DNA from: Candidatus Aenigmatarchaeota archaeon
GTDB lineage: Archaea > Aenigmatarchaeota > Aenigmatarchaeia > JACPZZ01
Assembly: GCA_016195275.1 (NCBI GenBank)
Contig: JACPZZ010000002.1
Location: 1-38,116 of the forward strand
Length of the DNA stretch: 38,116 nucleotides
Direction of reading: 5' to 3'
The translations under genes were made by a program, and so were the position numbers. Shown one piece after another: positions 4,218-34,043 of this stretch. Numbering within the stretch: the first letter of the stretch is position 1; every line of letters begins with the position of its first letter. The notes beneath the pieces were generated by a model, which saw only the letters and a list, made by a program, of their open reading frames with translations, made no database searches and had not been told where the DNA came from.

Positions 4218-4240
4218 TCGTTTAACGGAGGTTGTTTTGT

Positions 4241-7200
4241 ATGGTAATTGAGCAGATAGTGAAGCGTGATGGTGGTATTGTAAATTTCAACAGGGAAAAA
4301 ATAACAAGCGCCATTTTCAGGGCGGCGCGTTCTGTAGGCGGAAACGACAAGACTATCGCCGAAAAATTAAGCAATGAGGTTGTGCGATTACTCGAAGAGC
4401 GCGGCAAATTAGTTCCTACTGTGGAAGAAATACAGGATGTTGTAGAAAAAGTTTTAATTGAATCCGGTCATGCCGCGACCGCCAAAGCTTACATATTATA
4501 CAGGCAGAAGCGCGCGGAGTTGAGAGAGGAGAAGAAAAAGATACTTGAAAAAACCAACGTTGATGAGGTTGACAAGGTGTTTGATGTCAATGCTCTGCGT
4601 GTTCTGAAGTCCCGGTATCTAAGGAAAAGCGAGGATGGAAAACTCATAGAAACCCCCAAGCAGCTTTTCACAAGAGTCGCAACGCACACGGGCCTGGCAA
4701 ATCTTTTTTATGACGAAAAGGTTTTCAGCAAAGACGCAGCTACGACCCCGCACCCATCCGAAAACTTTGATCCTGCAGCAAATGAAAACCGTTATAAGAT
4801 CGGCAAATACTCGCTGAATCGTTACCACCTTGAAGCGCTGAAACGCGTTTATGACCGCACAAACAGCGAAGGCCGCATGAAAGTCGGCTGGGGCAGGTTC
4901 CTTTCGTTGATCGAGAATGGAGAAATGGACAGCCACGAAAAGGACATAGATAATTTCTACAACGTGATGACAACGAAGAAGTTCATGCCCAACACGCCTG
5001 CCATTGCGAACTTCGGCAATGTGCTTGGAATGGGATCCGCATGTTTCCACCCGGACCAGCTGATATCCGCAAAAGAAGGGGCTAAAAAAATAAGCGAAAT
5101 CGCGGTTGGCGACGAGGTATTAACCCATCGTGGGAGGTTCAGGAAAGTCAAAGAAATATTTATCAGGGAATCTAAATCTCTTCTTTCCTTCGACTGTAAA
5201 AAACTGCCCAACCAGACTTTGTTAGTAACCGATGAGCACCCTGTCTTTGCCTTAAAAGACGGCGAAGCTGGCTGGTATCCTGCATACATGCTCAGAGAAG
5301 GCGACAATGTAGCATTATCATACCCTGTTGAAACAAATGACATGGACAGCATAAAAATCAGCGATCTTGTGGAAGGCGTAACAGTTGAAAACGGGATGTG
5401 CTATTACGAGTACAAGGGCGGTAAATTTGATGCGTTAATACACGCTACAAAACAAGTGAAAGATAAAATTGAACTGGATTATGACCTGATGAAAGTTTTT
5501 GGGTTCTATTTGTCCGAAGGCAACGTTTCTGAAGGCGACTGCGTAAGATTCACCCTGTCTTCGGACGAATCGGACTATTGTAAATATATTATCTCGGTAA
5601 TGGAAAAGAAGTTTGGAATAACCGCGCGCACAGAGACTAACAAGGATCCTGAAAGGAAATGGTTATCGTTGCGTTTCCATTCAACAATACTCGCAAAATT
5701 CTTTGAAAAGTTGTTCGGAACCGGCTACGATAAAAAGAAAGTACCTGCCTGGATTATGACATTGCCCGTAGAGAAACAGAAGGGCCTGATGTCGGGCATG
5801 ATCCGCGGAGACGGGACGGTATTCAGGAATTGGAATAAAATGAATGCGAGATTAGTGATGTCGAATACCAACCTTGTATACGCATTCTGGCAGATGTGCA
5901 TGCGCTGCGGTGTGTTTGCAGCGTTGGGGAAGGAAAGCATGCCAAAGCTTGCGCGTATCCAACCAACAAGATGCACGCTCGGAACCGCAAAAGGACAGTT
6001 GCTGATGAACGAATTGTTCGATAAAACTTTGCAGGAAACTGTAGAGGAAGAGAAAACAATCGTAGTCAATGGCATTGTTTTCACCGAGATAGAGAAAATA
6101 GAAAAAACGGATTACAGCGGTGTTGTTTTCAACCTCGAAGTTGAAGAAGACCATTCTTATGTTGCAAACATGGTTTCTGTGCACAACTGCTTTGTTTTAG
6201 GAATAGATGATTCGATAGAAAGTATAATGGAATCGCTCAAACAGGCCGCAGTGATATTCAAATCAGGCGGCGGTTTAGGTTACAACTTCTCCAGGTTAAG
6301 GCCGGAAGGCGACATTGTGAAATCCACAAGCGGGATAGCATCAGGCCCGTTGTCATTTATGCGCTTGTTCGACACCATGACAGAAGTCATCAAACAAGGC
6401 GGTTGCGTCGCGACCGACACGTTAATACGGACAGACAAAGGTACAGTTCCAATAAGCAGTTTGTTGAATTGTGGCGCTTTTGGCGAGAACCCGACGAAAT
6501 ATTTTGTCTATGACGGCAAGGATTACAACCACGCATTAATAGCAATGAACAACGGACATGCAGAAGTGTTTAAAATAACCACTGAACTGGGCACAGAACT
6601 GAAATCCACATACAACCACATGGTTACCGTAGTTGATGCAAACGGGAAGTTCTCATGGAAACAGGTAATAGACCTTAAAGAAGGCGACTGGTTGGTTACT
6701 GTCTTGGGCGGCCATTCAGGCAAGGACATAGAGCTGTCTGAACCGGGAAAAATGCACTGCAACTCAAATGCGTTGAAAATCCCCAAAACACTTAACACCC
6801 AGCTAGCGGAAATACTGGGGCTGTACATGGCCGACGGATGTATAAACAACGGAAGATTCATCTTCACACTGAATTCACAGGACAGCGAACTGAAAGAAAG
6901 GATAAAATACCTGATGAAAGAAGTCTTTGGCCTGAAAGTCGGTAGCACATGGGACAAAAAAACGTATCTGGAACTTGTTTTCTACTCCAAAGCGCTGGGA
7001 AAATATTTTGAAAAAATGCATTGGAAGAAAAATAAATCCCCAGAAAGCTTTGTGCCCGATGAAATATTCCTGTCAAAGGAAAACGTGGCTTATGCGTTCT
7101 TGAAAGGTTTGTTCGAAGGCGATGCTACTGTGCACCCGGGCGGGTATCCAATTTTATACACAACTTCCAAGAAAATGGCGTCACAAGCCCAACAGTTACT

Positions 7201-10200
7201 GCTGGGGCTGGGGATGGTTTGCAAACTTCACCGCAAATCAGCAGAAAATATCAAAGGACACATAGGAAAAAATGACATCTATACTGCCATTGTGCTTACA
7301 GAAAGGTCGCTAAAACAATTCAAAGAAAAAATCGGGTTTGTAAGCACGAAAAAAAACAGGAAAATGGAAAATGTGGAAAAGGAAATAGAATACTCTGATG
7401 TTATACCGTATTCTCCGGAAATATTCGCATCCTATTACAAATGGGTTGGCAGGGGCTCTTCCAAAGGCAGGTCTAAAAAAGGGGCGAACCTGGAATATTA
7501 CCGCGCCGTGCACCATTATATCAAAGGCGACAGGAACATTACGAGAAAAACCCTTGAAAAGCTGATGAACAGATTTGAATTCCTGAAGAATGATAAAAGG
7601 CTGAAAGAGCTTTCAGACGGAAAATATTTCTTCACGAAAATAATAGCGATGGAAAAAACATACTTTCCGACAATGGAAATAGAAGTCCCTGTATCAGGCT
7701 GTTATACAGCCAACGGTTTTTTAGTTCATAACATCCGCCGCGGCGCAAACATGGGAATCCTGAACTCAAACCATCCTGACGTAGAAAAATTCATCAAGGC
7801 CAAGGAAGGCAACAAGATGCTGAGAAATTTCAACATCTCCGTGCTGATAATGCCGGACTTCTGGGAATATTATGAAAAAAACGAGCCGTATCCGTTAATC
7901 AATCCCCGCAGCGGCGAAATTATGCGAACCGTCAGTCCGAGGCTGTTGTTCGACATGATCGTTTATCAGGCGTGGGAATCCGCCGAACCTGGCGTGATAT
8001 TCTTCGACCATGTGAACAAATACAACCCGTTCTATGAACATCTTGGCCCGATTGTTACGACAAACCCGTGCGTAGCAGCAGATACGTTGGTTTCAACGGA
8101 AAAAGGGCTGGAAAGGATAGACTCAATAACATCAGAGAATATAAACGTAGACGCAAGAACGATGCCGGCCGAATCTGGACAATCTACTATGCAGCTGGGC
8201 GCATTGAATGTAAAGCTAGGAAAGGCGTTCAAGACTGGGTACAAAAAAACCTATAAGCTTGTTACAAAATCCGGCTACGAACTGACAGCTACAGAAGATC
8301 ACAAAATAATGACGGAAAAAGGCTGGAAAATTTTAAAAAGTTTGACACAAGAGGACAGCGTGCTGATACAATCAGGAGCTGGCAAATTTAACGAAAATCC
8401 AAAATTACCCTTCGAAGTTAACAACGAAATAATAGGAGAAAATGGAAGAAATTATGAATTAAACCTTCCGGCCTTATGGAATCACGAACTCGGCTTGTTA
8501 ATTGGTTGGTTGGTTGGGGACGGCTTCCTTAGTAAAAAGGATAACATATTGGGTCTGGTTTTCTCCAAAGAGGACGAAGAAGCAAGGCAAGTGATACAAC
8601 CCATCTTAGAGAAATATTGCAATAGAAAAATCAATTTGCTGGAATATGATAACGGCTGCGTGCAAGCAAGATCTGCGAGCAGATTTGTCGTTGATTTCTT
8701 CTCGAGCTTGGGTGTAACCGGCAGCAAGAAAGACAGCCGCGTCCCGCATTCTCTATTTACAGCCACAGAAGAAGCTGTGGCCGGTTTCTTGAAAGGATTG
8801 TTTTCGTCAGACGGGACAATAGGGCTCGGCATCAAAAGCAGGAATTACGCAAGGCTTAATTCCAGCTCCTTAAAACTGCTTAAAGACGTCCAGCTGCTGC
8901 TGCTTAACCTGGGAATAAGAAGCTCAATTTATGACCGCTTTACAAACCCGAAGAGCAAGAATTATGAGTTAAATATAAGCAAAGAAAATCTGCCCAGATT
9001 CCTGAATAAGATAGGCTTCTTACAAAGAGAAAATGTAGAAAAGGCTGATGAACTGCAAAGCTTCGAATTCTACAGGGAGAACTTCATAGACAATGTTAAA
9101 TCTATCGAAGATGCTGGCGAACAAGAAGTGTGGGATATCAACGAGCCTGTAACGCACTCGTTCGTTGCGAATGGTATTGTAGTGCACAACTGCGGCGAGG
9201 TTCTTCTTTATCCCAATGAACCGTGTAATCTCGGCTCGATCAATGTATGGTCTTTTGTCAAGGAAAGGGACGGAACCGTGTATTACGACTGGGAAGATTT
9301 GAAGAACACAGTACGCACCACGACAAGATTTTTGGACAACGTCATCGACATAAATAAGTGGCCGACCCCTGAAATCGAGCAGATGGCTCTGGCAACAAGA
9401 AAAGTCGGCCTTGGCATAATGGGGCTGGCAGACCTGCTCTACGAGCTAAGGTTGCCTTACAACTCGGAAGAAGGCCGCAAGTTTATGGAGAAGTTAATGG
9501 AATTCGTGAACTATTACTCCAAAGTCGAATCCTTGGAACTTGCGAAAGCGCGGGGGCCGATGCCGTACCTGGACAAAAGCTTCTACCCCAACGGCCGGTT
9601 GCCGTTTGCCGGATTCGAAGACAAAAGCAATTTGAACTTCGATTGGGACGCCCTGGTTGATGAGATAAAAATACACGGCATACGCAACGGCTACACGACA
9701 ATAATCGCGCCCACCGGAAGCATCTCGATGATCGCCGGCTGTTCATCGGGGATAGAACCGGTGTACACGCTGGCGTTCGAGAAGAACGTTGCAATAGGAA
9801 GCTTCTATTACGTCGATCCTGCTTTCGAAAAAATAATGCGCGAGGAGCGTTTGTTCGACGACCAGCTGATCAAGGACGTCGCCGCAAGCGGAGGAACAAT
9901 CCAAGGCGTTCCGTACGTGCCCAGCGTTATGAAAAAGACTTTTGTAACAGCCATGGACATAAGGCCGGAAGACCACATACGGACTTTGGCAGCGTTCCAG
10001 AGATGGACAGACTCCTCGATATCGAAGACCAACAACTTCCCCGCCGACGCTACTGTCGAGGATATGCGCGAAAGCTATTTGCTTGCGTACAAATTGGGCT
10101 GCAAAGACGTAACAGTATATAGGGACTCGTCGATAAAGAACCAGGTGCTTGTAGCCGTGAAAAAAGAAGAACCAAAGCGCATCTCCGTTGAAACCCACGG

Positions 10201-10333
10201 CCATGCTATGGACAGCAATGACACACCCGCGCACGAACTGAAAAACTGTAAAGAGTGTGGCGCAAGCCTGCTGAAAAAAGAAGGTTGTTTATCATGTCCG
10301 TCATGCGGCTGGGGAGTTTGCACATCGGCTTAA
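4241..10333 (+). CDS. nrdJ: class II (adenosylcobalamin) ribonucleotide reductase with three inteins
   Basis: Reduces ribonucleotides to deoxyribonucleotides with a B12-derived radical. The 2030-residue precursor is an 831-residue enzyme plus inteins of 382, 443 and 374 residues. Order: ATP-cone (1-90); N-extein to 267; intein 1; extein 650-721 with CFVLGIDDS and KSGGGLGYNFS; intein 2; extein 1165-1276 with RRGANMGIL; intein 3; C-extein 1651-2030 with PCGEVLLY, CNLGSIN, IAPTGSISMIAG and a C-terminal Cys cluster (CKECG, CPSCGWGVC) typical of NrdJ. No radical-generating small subunit gene is adjacent, which fits class II. ATG at 4241 is placed by GGAGG at 4227-4231. NrdR upstream is the likely repressor. 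Confidence 0.93.
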   Translation: MVIEQIVKRDGGIVNFNREKITSAIFRAARSVGGNDKTIAEKLSNEVVRLLEERGKLVPTVEEIQDVVEKVLIESGHAATAKAYILYRQKRAELREEKKKILEKTNVDEVDKVFDVNALRVLKSRYLRKSEDGKLIETPKQLFTRVATHTGLANLFYDEKVFSKDAATTPHPSENFDPAANENRYKIGKYSLNRYHLEALKRVYDRTNSEGRMKVGWGRFLSLIENGEMDSHEKDIDNFYNVMTTKKFMPNTPAIANFGNVLGMGSACFHPDQLISAKEGAKKISEIAVGDEVLTHRGRFRKVKEIFIRESKSLLSFDCKKLPNQTLLVTDEHPVFALKDGEAGWYPAYMLREGDNVALSYPVETNDMDSIKISDLVEGVTVENGMCYYEYKGGKFDALIHATKQVKDKIELDYDLMKVFGFYLSEGNVSEGDCVRFTLSSDESDYCKYIISVMEKKFGITARTETNKDPERKWLSLRFHSTILAKFFEKLFGTGYDKKKVPAWIMTLPVEKQKGLMSGMIRGDGTVFRNWNKMNARLVMSNTNLVYAFWQMCMRCGVFAALGKESMPKLARIQPTRCTLGTAKGQLLMNELFDKTLQETVEEEKTIVVNGIVFTEIEKIEKTDYSGVVFNLEVEEDHSYVANMVSVHNCFVLGIDDSIESIMESLKQAAVIFKSGGGLGYNFSRLRPEGDIVKSTSGIASGPLSFMRLFDTMTEVIKQGGCVATDTLIRTDKGTVPISSLLNCGAFGENPTKYFVYDGKDYNHALIAMNNGHAEVFKITTELGTELKSTYNHMVTVVDANGKFSWKQVIDLKEGDWLVTVLGGHSGKDIELSEPGKMHCNSNALKIPKTLNTQLAEILGLYMADGCINNGRFIFTLNSQDSELKERIKYLMKEVFGLKVGSTWDKKTYLELVFYSKALGKYFEKMHWKKNKSPESFVPDEIFLSKENVAYAFLKGLFEGDATVHPGGYPILYTTSKKMASQAQQLLLGLGMVCKLHRKSAENIKGHIGKNDIYTAIVLTERSLKQFKEKIGFVSTKKNRKMENVEKEIEYSDVIPYSPEIFASYYKWVGRGSSKGRSKKGANLEYYRAVHHYIKGDRNITRKTLEKLMNRFEFLKNDKRLKELSDGKYFFTKIIAMEKTYFPTMEIEVPVSGCYTANGFLVHNIRRGANMGILNSNHPDVEKFIKAKEGNKMLRNFNISVLIMPDFWEYYEKNEPYPLINPRSGEIMRTVSPRLLFDMIVYQAWESAEPGVIFFDHVNKYNPFYEHLGPIVTTNPCVAADTLVSTEKGLERIDSITSENINVDARTMPAESGQSTMQLGALNVKLGKAFKTGYKKTYKLVTKSGYELTATEDHKIMTEKGWKILKSLTQEDSVLIQSGAGKFNENPKLPFEVNNEIIGENGRNYELNLPALWNHELGLLIGWLVGDGFLSKKDNILGLVFSKEDEEARQVIQPILEKYCNRKINLLEYDNGCVQARSASRFVVDFFSSLGVTGSKKDSRVPHSLFTATEEAVAGFLKGLFSSDGTIGLGIKSRNYARLNSSSLKLLKDVQLLLLNLGIRSSIYDRFTNPKSKNYELNISKENLPRFLNKIGFLQRENVEKADELQSFEFYRENFIDNVKSIEDAGEQEVWDINEPVTHSFVANGIVVHNCGEVLLYPNEPCNLGSINVWSFVKERDGTVYYDWEDLKNTVRTTTRFLDNVIDINKWPTPEIEQMALATRKVGLGIMGLADLLYELRLPYNSEEGRKFMEKLMEFVNYYSKVESLELAKARGPMPYLDKSFYPNGRLPFAGFEDKSNLNFDWDALVDEIKIHGIRNGYTTIIAPTGSISMIAGCSSGIEPVYTLAFEKNVAIGSFYYVDPAFEKIMREERLFDDQLIKDVAASGGTIQGVPYVPSVMKKTFVTAMDIRPEDHIRTLAAFQRWTDSSISKTNNFPADATVEDMRESYLLAYKLGCKDVTVYRDSSIKNQVLVAVKKEEPKRISVETHGHAMDSNDTPAHELKNCKECGASLLKKEGCLSCPSCGWGVCTSA
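5042..6187 (+). mobile_element. intein 1 of nrdJ, with LAGLIDADG endonuclease
   Basis: 382 codons. It starts at Cys (CFHPDQLIS, block A), has the block B Thr/His pair in VTDEHPVF, LAGLIDADG motifs VFGFYLSEGN and LMSGMIRGDGT with acidic residues kept, and ends VSVHN. The +1 residue is Cys of CFVLGI. Removing it restores GSACFVLGIDDS, the conserved active-site cysteine region of the reductase. Both splicing and endonuclease parts look functional. Confidence 0.92.
6404..7732 (+). mobile_element. intein 2 of nrdJ, with LAGLIDADG endonuclease; +1 residue is Ile
   Basis: 443 codons. It starts Cys-Val-Ala-Thr-Asp-Thr-Leu-Ile, keeps a block B-like STYNHMV, LAGLIDADG motifs ILGLYMADG and FLKGLFEGDA, and ends FLVHN. 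About 90 extra residues precede block F, perhaps a DNA-recognition insert. The residue after the terminal Asn is Ile (codon ATC at 7733-7735), not the Cys, Ser or Thr needed in ordinary splicing. Removal gives KQGG-IRRGANMG, which matches the family except that the variable position is often Thr. Confidence 0.88.
8069..9190 (+). mobile_element. intein 3 of nrdJ, with LAGLIDADG endonuclease
   Basis: 374 codons. It starts CVAADTLVS, has block B TATEDHKIM, LAGLIDADG motifs LLIGWLVGDG and FLKGLFSSDG, and ends ANGIVVHN. The +1 residue is Cys. Removal restores TTNPCGEVLLYPNEPCNLGSIN-type sequence, so the element sits immediately before the cysteine that in class II reductases forms the thiyl radical. 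All expected splicing residues are present. Confidence 0.92.
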
Positions 10334-27566: not shown

Positions 27567-27998
27567 TCAAATATCCAGAATTACCTGCGCCGTCCACTTT
27601 TTGCCGTCATTCTTGACCTCGAATAAATGGTACGTAACAGCCTTCACGTCGACTACAAGTTCATGTTTGCTCATGTCTAATTTTTCGCCGAAACCGATAC
27701 AGACAAGCGAATAAGTGTTGTTTCTTTCCCTGATTTTGATCTCGTATTTGCCAAGGATCAAAAGCTCCGCATCCTTAAGGTATATTATTTCCTGCAGGAA
27801 GTTGAACAGGAGTTTTTCAATTTCATTGCTGGATACGGTTATTTTCCTGCGCTTCTTCAGTTCGATTTTCTTAAGGTCCTTTACCATTACGTTCGTAGTC
27901 GCAAGAGCCGCGGATTCAAAAAGTTCTTCGAGTGTTTTTCCTTCTGCCGTAAAAGCGACGTCTGCGACTGATAAACCTTCCACGAATTTGTAAGGCAT
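27567..27998 (-). CDS. archease
   Basis: 143 residues. Archease activates the RNA ligase RtcB for repeated turnover. Features: ADVAFTAEGKTLEELFESAA near the N-terminus (the family has an H-T-A-D-V-like motif; here it is S-V-A-D-V, so the His is replaced), NEIEKLLFNFLQEIIYL, and the C-terminal HELVVDVKAVTYHLFEVKND followed by the DI end. The partner gene rtcB is 4.5 kb away in this window and looks disrupted. Convergent with the HisRS remnant. Confidence 0.88.
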   Translation of the reverse strand: MPYKFVEGLSVADVAFTAEGKTLEELFESAALATTNVMVKDLKKIELKKRRKITVSSNEIEKLLFNFLQEIIYLKDAELLILGKYEIKIRERNNTYSLVCIGFGEKLDMSKHELVVDVKAVTYHLFEVKNDGKKWTAQVILDI

Positions 27999-31012: not shown

Positions 31013-31426
31013 TTGACAAAGAAGTTTGCGATAATTGTAGAAAAAGGAAGAGGGCATTACACGGCGTATGTTGCCGGTTTGGCGTGCTGCTACGCTAAAG
31101 GAAAAACCTTCAACGCATTGATTAAAAACGCTCAAAAATCGATTAAGCGTTATCTCAAAAACGAGGATGACGCCCCAGAAAGTGACTTTGTAGGTGTCCG
31201 TATATTAGAACTGCATGCACGCTCGCCAATGAAATTTACTGTTGTCATAGAAAAGGGAGAAAAATATTATATTGCATACGTTCCTTCGATGTCTGGATGC
31301 CATACCCAAGCCCCGACAATTAAAAAACTTATGGAGTATATCAAAGAGGCTGCAGTTCTTCACCTTTCATTGTACAAAAACAATAAAAAATCGGATTTTG
31401 TAGGCTTTAGATTACTAGAGGTTTAG
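31013..31426 (+). CDS. hicB: tandem HicB-domain antitoxin (copy 2)
   Basis: 137 residues, again two HicB-like units (FAIIVEKGRGHYTAYVAGLA and FTVVIEKGEKYYIAYVPSMSGC). TTG start preceded by GGTG at 31004-31007. Overall similarity to copy 1 is moderate, so the duplication is old in this part. The intact hicA follows, giving an antitoxin-first order. No separate DNA-binding domain is seen. Confidence 0.75.
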   Translation: MTKKFAIIVEKGRGHYTAYVAGLACCYAKGKTFNALIKNAQKSIKRYLKNEDDAPESDFVGVRILELHARSPMKFTVVIEKGEKYYIAYVPSMSGCHTQAPTIKKLMEYIKEAAVLHLSLYKNNKKSDFVGFRLLEV

Positions 31427-32456: not shown

Positions 32457-33698
32457 CTATGGATAATGACCAATAGACGAAAGCCTTAACGCCAATGAGA
32501 ACAATGCTAATAACAATGAAAATGCCATGGGAAGCATAAAACCAGAAACGCCTTTTACATTGCCCAAAGGCAAAAGCTTGCAAACCTTTTTCGATATTCC
32601 CGCGTTATGCACGCTGTCAATAACCTCGTCTATATCTTTGTAACTTGCACCGCTTTCTTCGGCCAAGCCGGAAAAGGAAACGGACTTGACATATATTCCG
32701 CGCGCCTCCATGTCTTTTTGAAGTTTGTCGCCTCGCACCATATTCCTTGCCTGCGTTCGTGACATCGTGCGTCCGGATCCATGACACGTCGAACAAAATG
32801 TTTCTGACGCTTTTTCGCTGCCAACCAATAAGTACGAACCCGTTTCCATTGAGCCGCCGATAATTACAGGCGAACCGTCGCCGCGGAACTCTTTTGGTAT
32901 TTCTTCGCGGCCCGCCGGATACGAACCCGTGGCGCCTTTCCTGTGCACGACAACTTCCTTAATGGAGCCGTCAACTTTATGTTTTTCCAGTGACGCGCGA
33001 TTGTGAGCCACATCAAAAACCTGTCGCAGGCCCAGCGATTCGGCGTCTTGCTTGAACGTTTCGGAAAAAACTTCGCGTATTCTGTGCAATATCACTTGTC
33101 GGTTTGCAAAAGACATATTCACTCCGCATTTCATCGCTTTGAAATAGTCCTGGCCTTCCGGCGAGCTAAACGGCGCGCACGCAAGCTCGCGGTCGAGGAT
33201 TTTTATTTTGTATTTACTTTCCATCACGTCGAGAAATGTTTGCAGATAATCCGTGCCTATTTGATGGCCGAATCCGCGACTGCCACAATGGAACATCACC
33301 ACAATCTGGTTTTCAAACAATCCCCATTTCTTCGCAAGCGTTTCGTCTGCAATGTTTTCTTTCTTCACAACCTGTATTTCCAGGTAATGGTTGCCGGACC
33401 CCAAAGTTCCGATCTGGTTAAAACCGCGGTCAATCGCTTTCGAAGAAACTTTTGAGGTGTCGGCGCCTTCGGCGCATCCGTTTAGCTCTGTCCTTTCTAA
33501 ATCTTCGTCCCAGCCATAGCCGTTTTTAACAGCCCAATGCCCGCCTTCGACTATTAATTTCCTGAACTGGTCTTTCGTTAATTTGACAAATCCTGTAGAA
33601 CCGACGCCGGCTGGAACCTTTGCAAAAAGCTTGTCGACTAACTGTTTCATGTGCGGCTTGACGTCTTTCAGCGTTAAATTTGTCAAAACCAAGCGCAT
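32457..33698 (-). CDS. rtcB: RtcB RNA-splicing ligase, intact C-terminal 80 percent with hydrophobic extension
   Basis: RtcB joins RNA 3'-phosphate or cyclic phosphate ends to 5'-OH ends after tRNA splicing, using GTP and Mn. From RLVLTNLTLKDVKPHMKQLV to LGNVKG the frame is well conserved: TLGSGNHYLEIQ, MFHCGSRGFGHQ, VFDVAHN, and VVVHRKGATGSYP (guanylylated His), STCHGSGR. The upstream part of the gene is interrupted (see 33699-33981), including the NCG cysteine ligand. Normal RtcB stops after the final KG; here 30 codons follow (32460-32549) with a hydrophobic helix MAFSLLLALFSLALRL. ATG 33698 is only a formal start. Confidence 0.8.
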   Translation of the reverse strand: MRLVLTNLTLKDVKPHMKQLVDKLFAKVPAGVGSTGFVKLTKDQFRKLIVEGGHWAVKNGYGWDEDLERTELNGCAEGADTSKVSSKAIDRGFNQIGTLGSGNHYLEIQVVKKENIADETLAKKWGLFENQIVVMFHCGSRGFGHQIGTDYLQTFLDVMESKYKIKILDRELACAPFSSPEGQDYFKAMKCGVNMSFANRQVILHRIREVFSETFKQDAESLGLRQVFDVAHNRASLEKHKVDGSIKEVVVHRKGATGSYPAGREEIPKEFRGDGSPVIIGGSMETGSYLLVGSEKASETFCSTCHGSGRTMSRTQARNMVRGDKLQKDMEARGIYVKSVSFSGLAEESGASYKDIDEVIDSVHNAGISKKVCKLLPLGNVKGVSGFMLPMAFSLLLALFSLALRLSSIGHYP

Positions 33699-33981
33699 AC
33701 CGCAGTTTTGCGACTCGAATCAAGTTTTCGCTTGAAATCAGATGTCGAACCCGATACCGCCTGGCGAAATCACGCCTTCTGTCGCATCAAACGCTGCTAC
33801 GCCGCCAATCGGAAATCCGTACCCGGAATTGCCCCTTAATCATAAGGTATGGCCATCGGGCATGCAAAAAGCATGGTTGATGATTCCCGGCAACATCGCT
33901 ACGTTTGTGTTTCGGTATCTCCCAGACGTAATCATTTATCTTGTCTAATTTCGGTTTCTGTAAATTATCCCTGAATCCCAT
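33699..33981 (-). pseudogene. disrupted 5' part of rtcB
   Basis: On the minus strand, MGFRDNLQKP and NDYVWEIPK (start ATG 33981 behind GGTGA) are a normal RtcB N-terminus. Then about 40 residues are missing and the frame shifts near 33902-33915. RtcB sequence resumes as NVAMLPGIINHAFCMPDGH, is broken by 24 bases with a TGA (33825-33848), resumes as [17 protein letters not shown] and SPGGIGFDI, is broken by 33 bases with two TGAs (33708-33740), and resumes as NCGMRLVLTNL. Both insertions keep the frame and each holds a short hairpin. Confidence 0.75.
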
Positions 33982-34043
33982 CTCGATTTTCACCCCCCTT
34001 TCTAAGAGCCTATAAAGTCTATAATTATTAGGCGGGAAGAAAC

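What the first reader, a model, noticed from the sequence alone, without database searches (positions are those of the whole stretch)
33699..33981. rtcB carries two in-frame, stop-containing mini-insertions exactly at catalytic motifs
The 24-base insertion interrupts [13 protein letters not shown], and the 33-base insertion falls between GFDI and NCG, next to the metal-binding Cys. Both preserve the frame, all in-frame stops are TGA, and each contains a small perfect hairpin (CCTTA/TAAGG; TCAAG/CTTGA). About 410 downstream codons stay highly conserved. RtcB is itself the tRNA-splicing ligase, so RNA-level removal of these segments would make an autoregulatory loop. Against this, about 40 residues are also missing with a frameshift at 33902-33915, and I could not draw a canonical bulge-helix-bulge, so decay is the main alternative.
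Basis: partly seen in the sequence, partly recalled or inferred. Interest (0 to 1): 0.75.

Follow-up and report, generated by a model that had tools for sequence, protein, structure and literature searches.

The report
Tiny introns inside an RNA-ligase gene
In a small-genome archaeon and 28 relatives, the gene for the RNA-joining enzyme RtcB is interrupted at its active-site codons by inserts of 13-34 bases shaped like tRNA introns, so the cell apparently needs RtcB to finish the message that makes RtcB.

Summary
They are not private decay. A survey found 35 such inserts (13-34 nt) in rtcB of 29 archaeal genomes, all in two catalytic motifs, MPDGH^(S/W)GYGFPIGG and GFDI^NCG; 21 of 35 would shift the frame. 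In all 35, a splice register that restores the invariant protein puts both cuts in bulge-helix-bulge (BHB) geometry, the substrate of archaeal tRNA-splicing endonuclease. Hairpin and exon-intron helix covary. EndA, Archease and intron-bearing tRNA genes are in the genome. A control gene (rpoB) shows no such inserts in 141 genomes.

Best explanation: minimal BHB pre-mRNA introns, cut by EndA and joined by RtcB itself; like crenarchaeal cbf5 introns, but in a new gene, a new lineage, and the gene of the ligase the reaction needs. Splicing is inferred; no RNA was available. The window copy also has an 89-nt frame-breaking N-terminal deletion and a lost stop, so this copy may be mis-assembled or recently broken; the sister genome has the same 21-nt insert without that deletion. 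Regulation by self-dependence is plausible but untested.

The parts
32457..33990 (-). rtcB (3'-phosphate/5'-OH RNA ligase), interrupted; PF01139 match 32550-33908
   Evidence: PF01139 E=9e-162 with 3 TGA inside, single copy in the genome; frames read
33828..33848 (-). intron 1, 21 nt (ACCUUAUGAUUAAGGGGCAAU), between the His and Ser codons of MPDGH^SGYGFPIGG
   Evidence: protein-restoring register with central GGCC/GGCA (3 pairs plus G.A) and a 5-bp inner helix, shuffle P 0.0013; shared with L002; located
33709..33741 (-). intron 2, 33 nt (CUGAUUUCAAGCG...GAGUCGCA), cutting the Ile codon of GFDI^NCG
   Evidence: central CGAC/GUCG 4/4, outer GGUU/AACU, cuts AU^C and CA^A restore GAC AUA AAC UGC = D-I-N-C; weak innermost pairing (P 0.035); located
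33849..33860 (-). 5' exon part of the intron-1 BHB (CCCGAUGGCCAU): outer CCCG, central GGCC, bulge AU
   Evidence: structure and covariation
33742..33752 (-). 5' exon part of the intron-2 BHB (GGGUUCGACAU): outer GGUU, central CGAC, bulge AU
33906..33912 (-). junction of the 89-nt N-terminal deletion (after VWEIPK, before TNVAML); breaks the frame
   Evidence: alignment with L002; missing piece not elsewhere in the assembly
32457..32549 (-). C-terminal 30-residue extension after ...GNVKG, due to loss of the stop codon that sisters keep
27567..27998 (-). Archease, the RtcB activator, intact
   Evidence: PF01951 E=3.1e-39 at 27570-27968

Best explanation
The two inserts are minimal archaeal BHB introns in the rtcB pre-mRNA. 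The transcript folds so that a short helix between the end of the upstream exon and the end of the intron is flanked by two bulges. The tRNA-splicing endonuclease EndA cuts after the second nucleotide of each bulge, and the exons, ending in 2',3'-cyclic phosphate and 5'-OH, are joined by RtcB with Archease as activator. This restores the catalytic motifs [14 protein letters not shown] and GFDINCG. RtcB synthesis therefore depends on pre-existing RtcB. Shown here: the inserts, their recurrence, the structure, the covariation, purifying selection and the genes of the pathway. Inferred: transcription, cleavage, ligation, and any regulatory use of the loop.
For: Recurrence: 35 inserts in rtcB of 29 genomes, all in two motifs; 21 genomes share the exact site-1 position. 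21 of 35 lengths are not multiples of three. In every case a register that restores the protein has at least 3 of 4 central exon-intron pairs; all 26 tested by shuffling have P<0.05, 22 of them <=0.005. Covariation at site 1: 29 cells changed on both sides against 8.7 in shuffles, score 0.579 against 0.230, collapsing when the partner is slid by one to three columns. Introns at other positions fit the same geometry: L136 restores EGYGFP, L093 restores GYDIN as in relatives L090/L094, L146/L147 restore GHWGY. Precise absence in sisters L003 and L004. Window rtcB is under purifying selection (dN 0.063, dS 1.74 against L002) with no excess of private changes. All 39 genomes at least 90% complete keep rtcB; in seven of them (G026, G083, G040, G047, G027, G015, G031) the interrupted gene is the only one listed. 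EndA with both domains, Archease and tRNA genes with introns are in the genome; EndA is in 18 of 22 genomes checked, including all 8 of high quality. rpoB control: no such inserts in 141 genomes.
Against: No RNA data. Site 1 usually has G.A as the outermost central pair and an irregular outer helix, a relaxed rather than canonical BHB (L125 has G-U and L152 G-C there). Window site 2 has a weak innermost helix, and its minimum-energy fold uses part of the 5' bulge. The window gene has two further lesions, so this copy may not make RtcB as assembled. Four intron-bearing genomes (G105, G107 and those of L010 and L067) showed no EndA; two are 70-77% complete, completeness of the other two is not told. 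Most genomes are metagenome-assembled.
Confidence: 0.88

Rival explanations
1. Pseudogene decay or assembly error: the inserts are meaningless lesions in a dying or mis-assembled rtcB.
For: The window copy has an 89-nt frame-breaking deletion and a lost stop; metagenome-assembled genomes of this phylum show small frame-breaking deletions or point stops even in rpoB (G003, G084, G100, G125).
Against: The same motifs are interrupted in 29 genomes, with BHB geometry and covariation; dN/dS about 0.04 and no private changes at positions invariant in six relatives; only rtcB copy, in a gene kept by all high-quality genomes; no such inserts in the control gene.
Confidence: 0.05
2. Translational bypassing: ribosomes hop over the inserts, as in T4 gene 60 or yeast mitochondrial byps.
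For: Short hairpin-containing inserts inside coding sequence with in-frame stops; precise restoration of the reading frame is needed either way.
Against: Matched take-off and landing codons, as in gene 60 (established knowledge), are absent: CAU/CAC against AAU, AAA, AAG, UAA. The conserved pairing joins exon and intron ends in endonuclease geometry, which bypassing does not predict. EndA and RtcB are present.
Confidence: 0.04
3. Stop-codon readthrough (all TGA): the inserts are translated as extra residues.
For: Both window inserts are multiples of three and all three stops are TGA.
Against: 21 of 35 homologous inserts shift the frame; the sister has TAA at the same place; the inserts would split catalytic motifs.
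Confidence: 0.01
4. A refinement rather than a rival of the splicing model: the introns are real, but the self-dependence on RtcB has no regulatory role; they are neutral or selfish elements tolerated because they are spliced efficiently.
For: Patchy distribution, 14 label changes on the RtcB tree, and clean absence in sisters; inteins sit at the same motif.
Against: Repeated occupation of the ligase gene but not of rpoB or EndA (no stops in any EndA hit) suggests something special about rtcB.
Confidence: 0.55

Closest known systems
cbf5 pre-mRNA introns of Crenarchaeota (Watanabe 2002; Yokobori 2009, PMC2738675)
   Same: BHB-type introns in a protein-coding gene, disrupting a catalytic codon, with lineage-specific gain and loss; the gene encodes an RNA-processing enzyme
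   Different: Different gene (rtcB), DPANN archaea instead of Crenarchaeota, several distinct positions, lengths down to 13-34 nt, and the host gene encodes the ligase that splicing itself needs; cbf5 splicing is experimentally shown, here it is inferred
Archaeal pre-tRNA BHB introns
   Same: Same cut geometry; the genome has tRNA introns, most about 15-55 nt
   Different: In an mRNA; site 1 is a relaxed variant with a G.A pair
XBP1 / HAC1 mRNA splicing in the unfolded protein response
   Same: Tiny mRNA intron (26 nt in XBP1) cut by an endonuclease and joined by RtcB (PMC10630183)
   Different: Cut by IRE1 at two stem-loops, not by EndA at a BHB; not in the ligase gene; a likeness of mechanism, not of descent
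Putative 12-bp introns in an archaeal virus (Peng et al., cited in PMC2738675)
   Same: Extremely short insertions in archaeal protein-coding genes
   Different: Splicing not demonstrated and insertion mechanism unknown; viral genes
RtcB inteins
   Same: Sit at the same GFDIN^CG motif in relatives (L007, L009, L012)
   Different: Protein-level, hundreds of residues, open reading frame; the mini-inserts carry stops or frameshifts

Membership tests
Archaeal BHB pre-mRNA introns (cbf5 type) | Splice sites in a bulge-helix-bulge: 4-bp central helix, two 3-nt bulges, cut after the second bulge nucleotide | tested here: met
   Window site 2 has 4/4 central pairs (inner helix weak); site 1 has 3 pairs plus G.A, a relaxed form; 35/35 inserts have at least 3/4 at a protein-restoring register
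Archaeal BHB pre-mRNA introns (cbf5 type) | Removal restores a conserved, selected open reading frame | tested here: met
   [14 protein letters not shown] and GFDINCGMR restored; dN 0.063 / dS 1.74. The window copy has a separate N-terminal frame break
Archaeal BHB pre-mRNA introns (cbf5 type) | tRNA-splicing endonuclease gene in the genome | tested here: met
   PF01974 and PF02778 on C15
Archaeal BHB pre-mRNA introns (cbf5 type) | Presence/absence variation with precise absence in relatives | tested here: met
   L001 and L002 with, L003 and L004 without the site-1 insert
Archaeal BHB pre-mRNA introns (cbf5 type) | Spliced mRNA detected | not testable with these tools
   no transcript data available
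Translational bypass element | Matched take-off and landing codons | tested here: not met
   CAU/CAC against AAU, AAA, AAG, UAA
Stop-codon readthrough | Insert in frame in all members | tested here: not met
   21 of 35 lengths not divisible by three
Intein | Open reading frame through the insert with splicing blocks | tested here: not met
   13-34 nt inserts, most with stops or frameshifts

The most novel reading that the evidence does not exclude
RtcB in these archaea is under obligate self-dependent control: its message stays untranslatable across the active site until RtcB itself ligates it, so the introns act as a sensor of ligase activity, a positive-feedback switch kept by selection rather than a relic.
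Probability: 0.3. Interest if true: 0.9.

Novelty: new variant of a known kind. Interest (0 to 1): 0.78.

Why it matters
Splicing of archaeal protein-coding messages had been confirmed for one gene, cbf5 of Crenarchaeota, as of 2009 (PMC2738675), and no report of rtcB introns turned up in the open-access library searched here. A recurrent catalytic-site intron in the ligase gene across at least two groups of small-genome archaea would add a second gene, include some of the shortest introns proposed, make a closed dependency loop directly testable, and explain why automated annotation would call these genes broken.

Tried and rejected
Second intact rtcB in the own genome: none. Missing N-terminal piece elsewhere in the assembly (a trans-spliced exon): none found. 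Gene decay as explanation of the inserts: rejected on selection and recurrence. Readthrough and bypassing: rejected on frame and codons. Phage or viral carriage of this rtcB: no DNA match in phages, only about 30%-identical relatives in viral contigs. General noisiness of conserved genes in this phylum: the rpoB control showed deletions and point stops but no insert of this kind. Candidates G011, G023 and G025, picked for their length, had no insert at these sites.

Full report
What is in the window. The window is contig C11 of a 1.07-Mb, 34-contig, 83%-complete archaeal genome; the closest named relatives of its RtcB are groundwater Aenigmatarchaeota assemblies. rtcB lies on the - strand with one PF01139 match (32550-33908, E 9e-162, three TGA inside) and no second copy. 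Two short inserts interrupt it. Against sisters L003 and L004, which read [14 protein letters not shown] and GFDINCG without interruption, they are 21 nt and 33 nt; best borders are 33828-33848 and 33709-33741. Two further departures were found: an 89-nt frame-breaking deletion between VWEIPK and TNVAML relative to L002, the missing piece not present elsewhere in the assembly, and loss of the C-terminal stop that the sisters keep. Gene order around rtcB matches sister L002 on both sides: an S26e-like gene upstream, a pterin dehydratase gene downstream.

Recurrence. Relatives were fetched by protein search, by whole-genome search over 60 relatives and 156 genomes of the phylum, and by a DNA-pattern search over 371 genomes of the phylum of L053, a Nanoarchaeota-labelled record. 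The exact site-1 position (after the His codon) is occupied in 21 genomes: window, L002, L005, L008, L010, L011, L053, L067, L124-L129, L137, L145, L148, L149, L150, L152, L153. Shifted positions in the same motif occur in L131, L136, L138, L139, L140, L146 and L147. The GFDI/NCG motif is interrupted in the window, L010, L128, L129, L131, L093 and L140. That makes 35 inserts in 29 genomes, 13-34 nt long; 21 of the 35 lengths are not multiples of three. In the phylum survey at least 17 of 136 genomes with rtcB carry one. These counts are lower bounds, because only stop-containing, split or pattern-matching hits were read in detail.

Structure. For each insert, registers that restore the conserved peptide were listed and scored for BHB geometry: four central pairs between exon and intron ends, cuts after the second nucleotide of each three-nucleotide bulge, then an inner intron helix. 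Every insert has a protein-restoring register with at least three of four central pairs; 15 have four. Neighbouring registers mostly have zero to two. With exons fixed and introns shuffled, all 26 tested have P below 0.05 and 22 are at or below 0.005. Window site 2 has CGAC/GUCG, outer GGUU/AACU and cuts AU^C and CA^A, giving GAC AUA AAC UGC (D-I-N-C); its inner helix is weak (P 0.035), and the minimum-energy fold borrows part of the 5' bulge. Window site 1 has GGCC/GGCA, three Watson-Crick pairs and a G.A, with a 5-bp inner helix (P 0.0013). The G.A is the rule at site 1 but is G-U in L125 and G-C in L152, which supports the register. On 14 site-1 introns the ten pairs are standard in 84% of cells against 67% in shuffles; 29 cells have changes on both sides against 8.7; the exon-intron middle pair varies C-G, U-A, U-G; sliding the partner by one to three columns destroys the signal. 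The shuffle control ignores relatedness, so its counts are not probabilities; the slide control keeps relatedness.

Different positions make separate predictions that hold. L136 cuts inside the Gly-Tyr pair and restores EGYGFP. L093 predicts GYDIN rather than GFDIN, as found in its relatives L090 and L094. L146 and L147 use CCAU/AUGG or CCAU/GUGG and restore GHWGY.

Function of the host gene. In Pyrococcus horikoshii RtcB, Asp95 and Cys98 bind manganese (PMC10630183). By motif, site 2 separates the GFD aspartate from the NCG cysteine, so an unspliced message should not give active ligase. All 39 genomes at least 90% complete in the survey have rtcB, and in G026, G083, G040, G047, G027, G015 and G031 the interrupted gene is the only one listed. 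G086 is an exception, with an interrupted copy on C80 and an uninterrupted one on C44, at 4% contamination. Window against L002: dN 0.063, dS 1.74 (near saturation, so the ratio is rough); no private change at positions invariant in six relatives; four lineage-specific changes against four, two and seven in the sisters. This is not the record of a long-dead gene.

Machinery. EndA with N and catalytic domains (214 aa) is on C15. Archease, the RtcB activator, is in the window itself at 27567-27998. Of 20 tRNA genes found, ARAGORN with introns allowed places introns, most of about 15-55 nt, in eight of ten long ones examined plus one 6-nt call (some isotype and border calls, such as tRNA-Pyl, look doubtful). 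EndA was found in 18 of 22 genomes checked, including all eight of high quality.

Control. The same survey with the RNA polymerase domain PF00562 over 151 genomes (141 with the gene) gave no insert of this type. It did give point stops (G100, G125) and small frame-breaking deletions (G003, G084). So deletions such as the window's N-terminal one can be assembly or strain noise in this phylum, whereas the inserts are not explained that way.

Evolution. On a 67-row RtcB tree, intron presence needs 14 changes. In the window's genus the window and L002 have the site-1 intron, and L003 and L004 lack it precisely. Clean loss is expected if spliced RNA can recombine back into the genome, but other routes are possible. 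Inteins occupy the same GFDIN^CG motif in L007, L009 and L012, so this motif hosts splicing elements of two kinds.

Comparison with the literature. Archaeal pre-mRNA splicing was established for cbf5 of Crenarchaeota, where the intron disrupts a catalytic codon; as of 2009 no other gene had been confirmed (PMC2738675). A 2019 review mentions BHB motifs in pre-mRNA only by citing that work (PMC6379350). Ten full-text searches of the open-access library found no report of introns in rtcB; subscription papers and preprints were not covered. The nearest functional likeness is XBP1, whose 26-nt intron is removed by IRE1 and sealed by RtcB (PMC10630183).

Verdict. The inserts are very probably BHB introns removed by EndA and RtcB (0.88). 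That RtcB is needed to make RtcB follows from the known pathway. Whether the loop is used for control is open (0.3). Whether the window's own copy is functional as assembled is doubtful and should be checked in reads; the conclusion does not rest on it.

Noticed in passing
33906-33912 (- strand): 89-nt frame-breaking deletion near the rtcB N-terminus, absent from sisters; could be assembly error, strain variation or real damage.
   Followed up: partly
32457-32549 (- strand): rtcB stop codon lost; 30-residue, partly hydrophobic tail not present in sisters.
   Followed up: partly
4232-10333 (+ strand): Ribonucleotide reductase large subunit of 2033 aa carrying several intein and LAGLIDADG domains.
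   Followed up: no
L007, L009, L012, L019, L050: RtcB inteins whose C-terminal end sits at GFDIN^CG, the same motif as the site-2 introns.
   Followed up: partly
L140 (G086:C80): Two inserts of only 16 and 13 nt in one rtcB, both with four central BHB pairs; the same genome bin has an uninterrupted rtcB on another contig.
   Followed up: partly
L146, L147 (G233, G179): Introns in the same motif but in another register (CCAU/AUGG or CCAU/GUGG), restoring GHWGY.
   Followed up: yes
L162 (G003) and L163 (G084): RNA polymerase subunit genes with small frame-breaking deletions in metagenome assemblies.
   Followed up: partly
L130 (G061): rtcB with a frame break in mid-gene (after GSKGKIRL) that is not an insert of the intron kind; not explained.
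   Followed up: no
31013-31426 (+ strand): HicB-like antitoxin domain protein downstream of rtcB.
   Followed up: no
27567-27998 (- strand): Archease, the RtcB activator, lies about 5 kb from rtcB on the same contig.
   Followed up: yes
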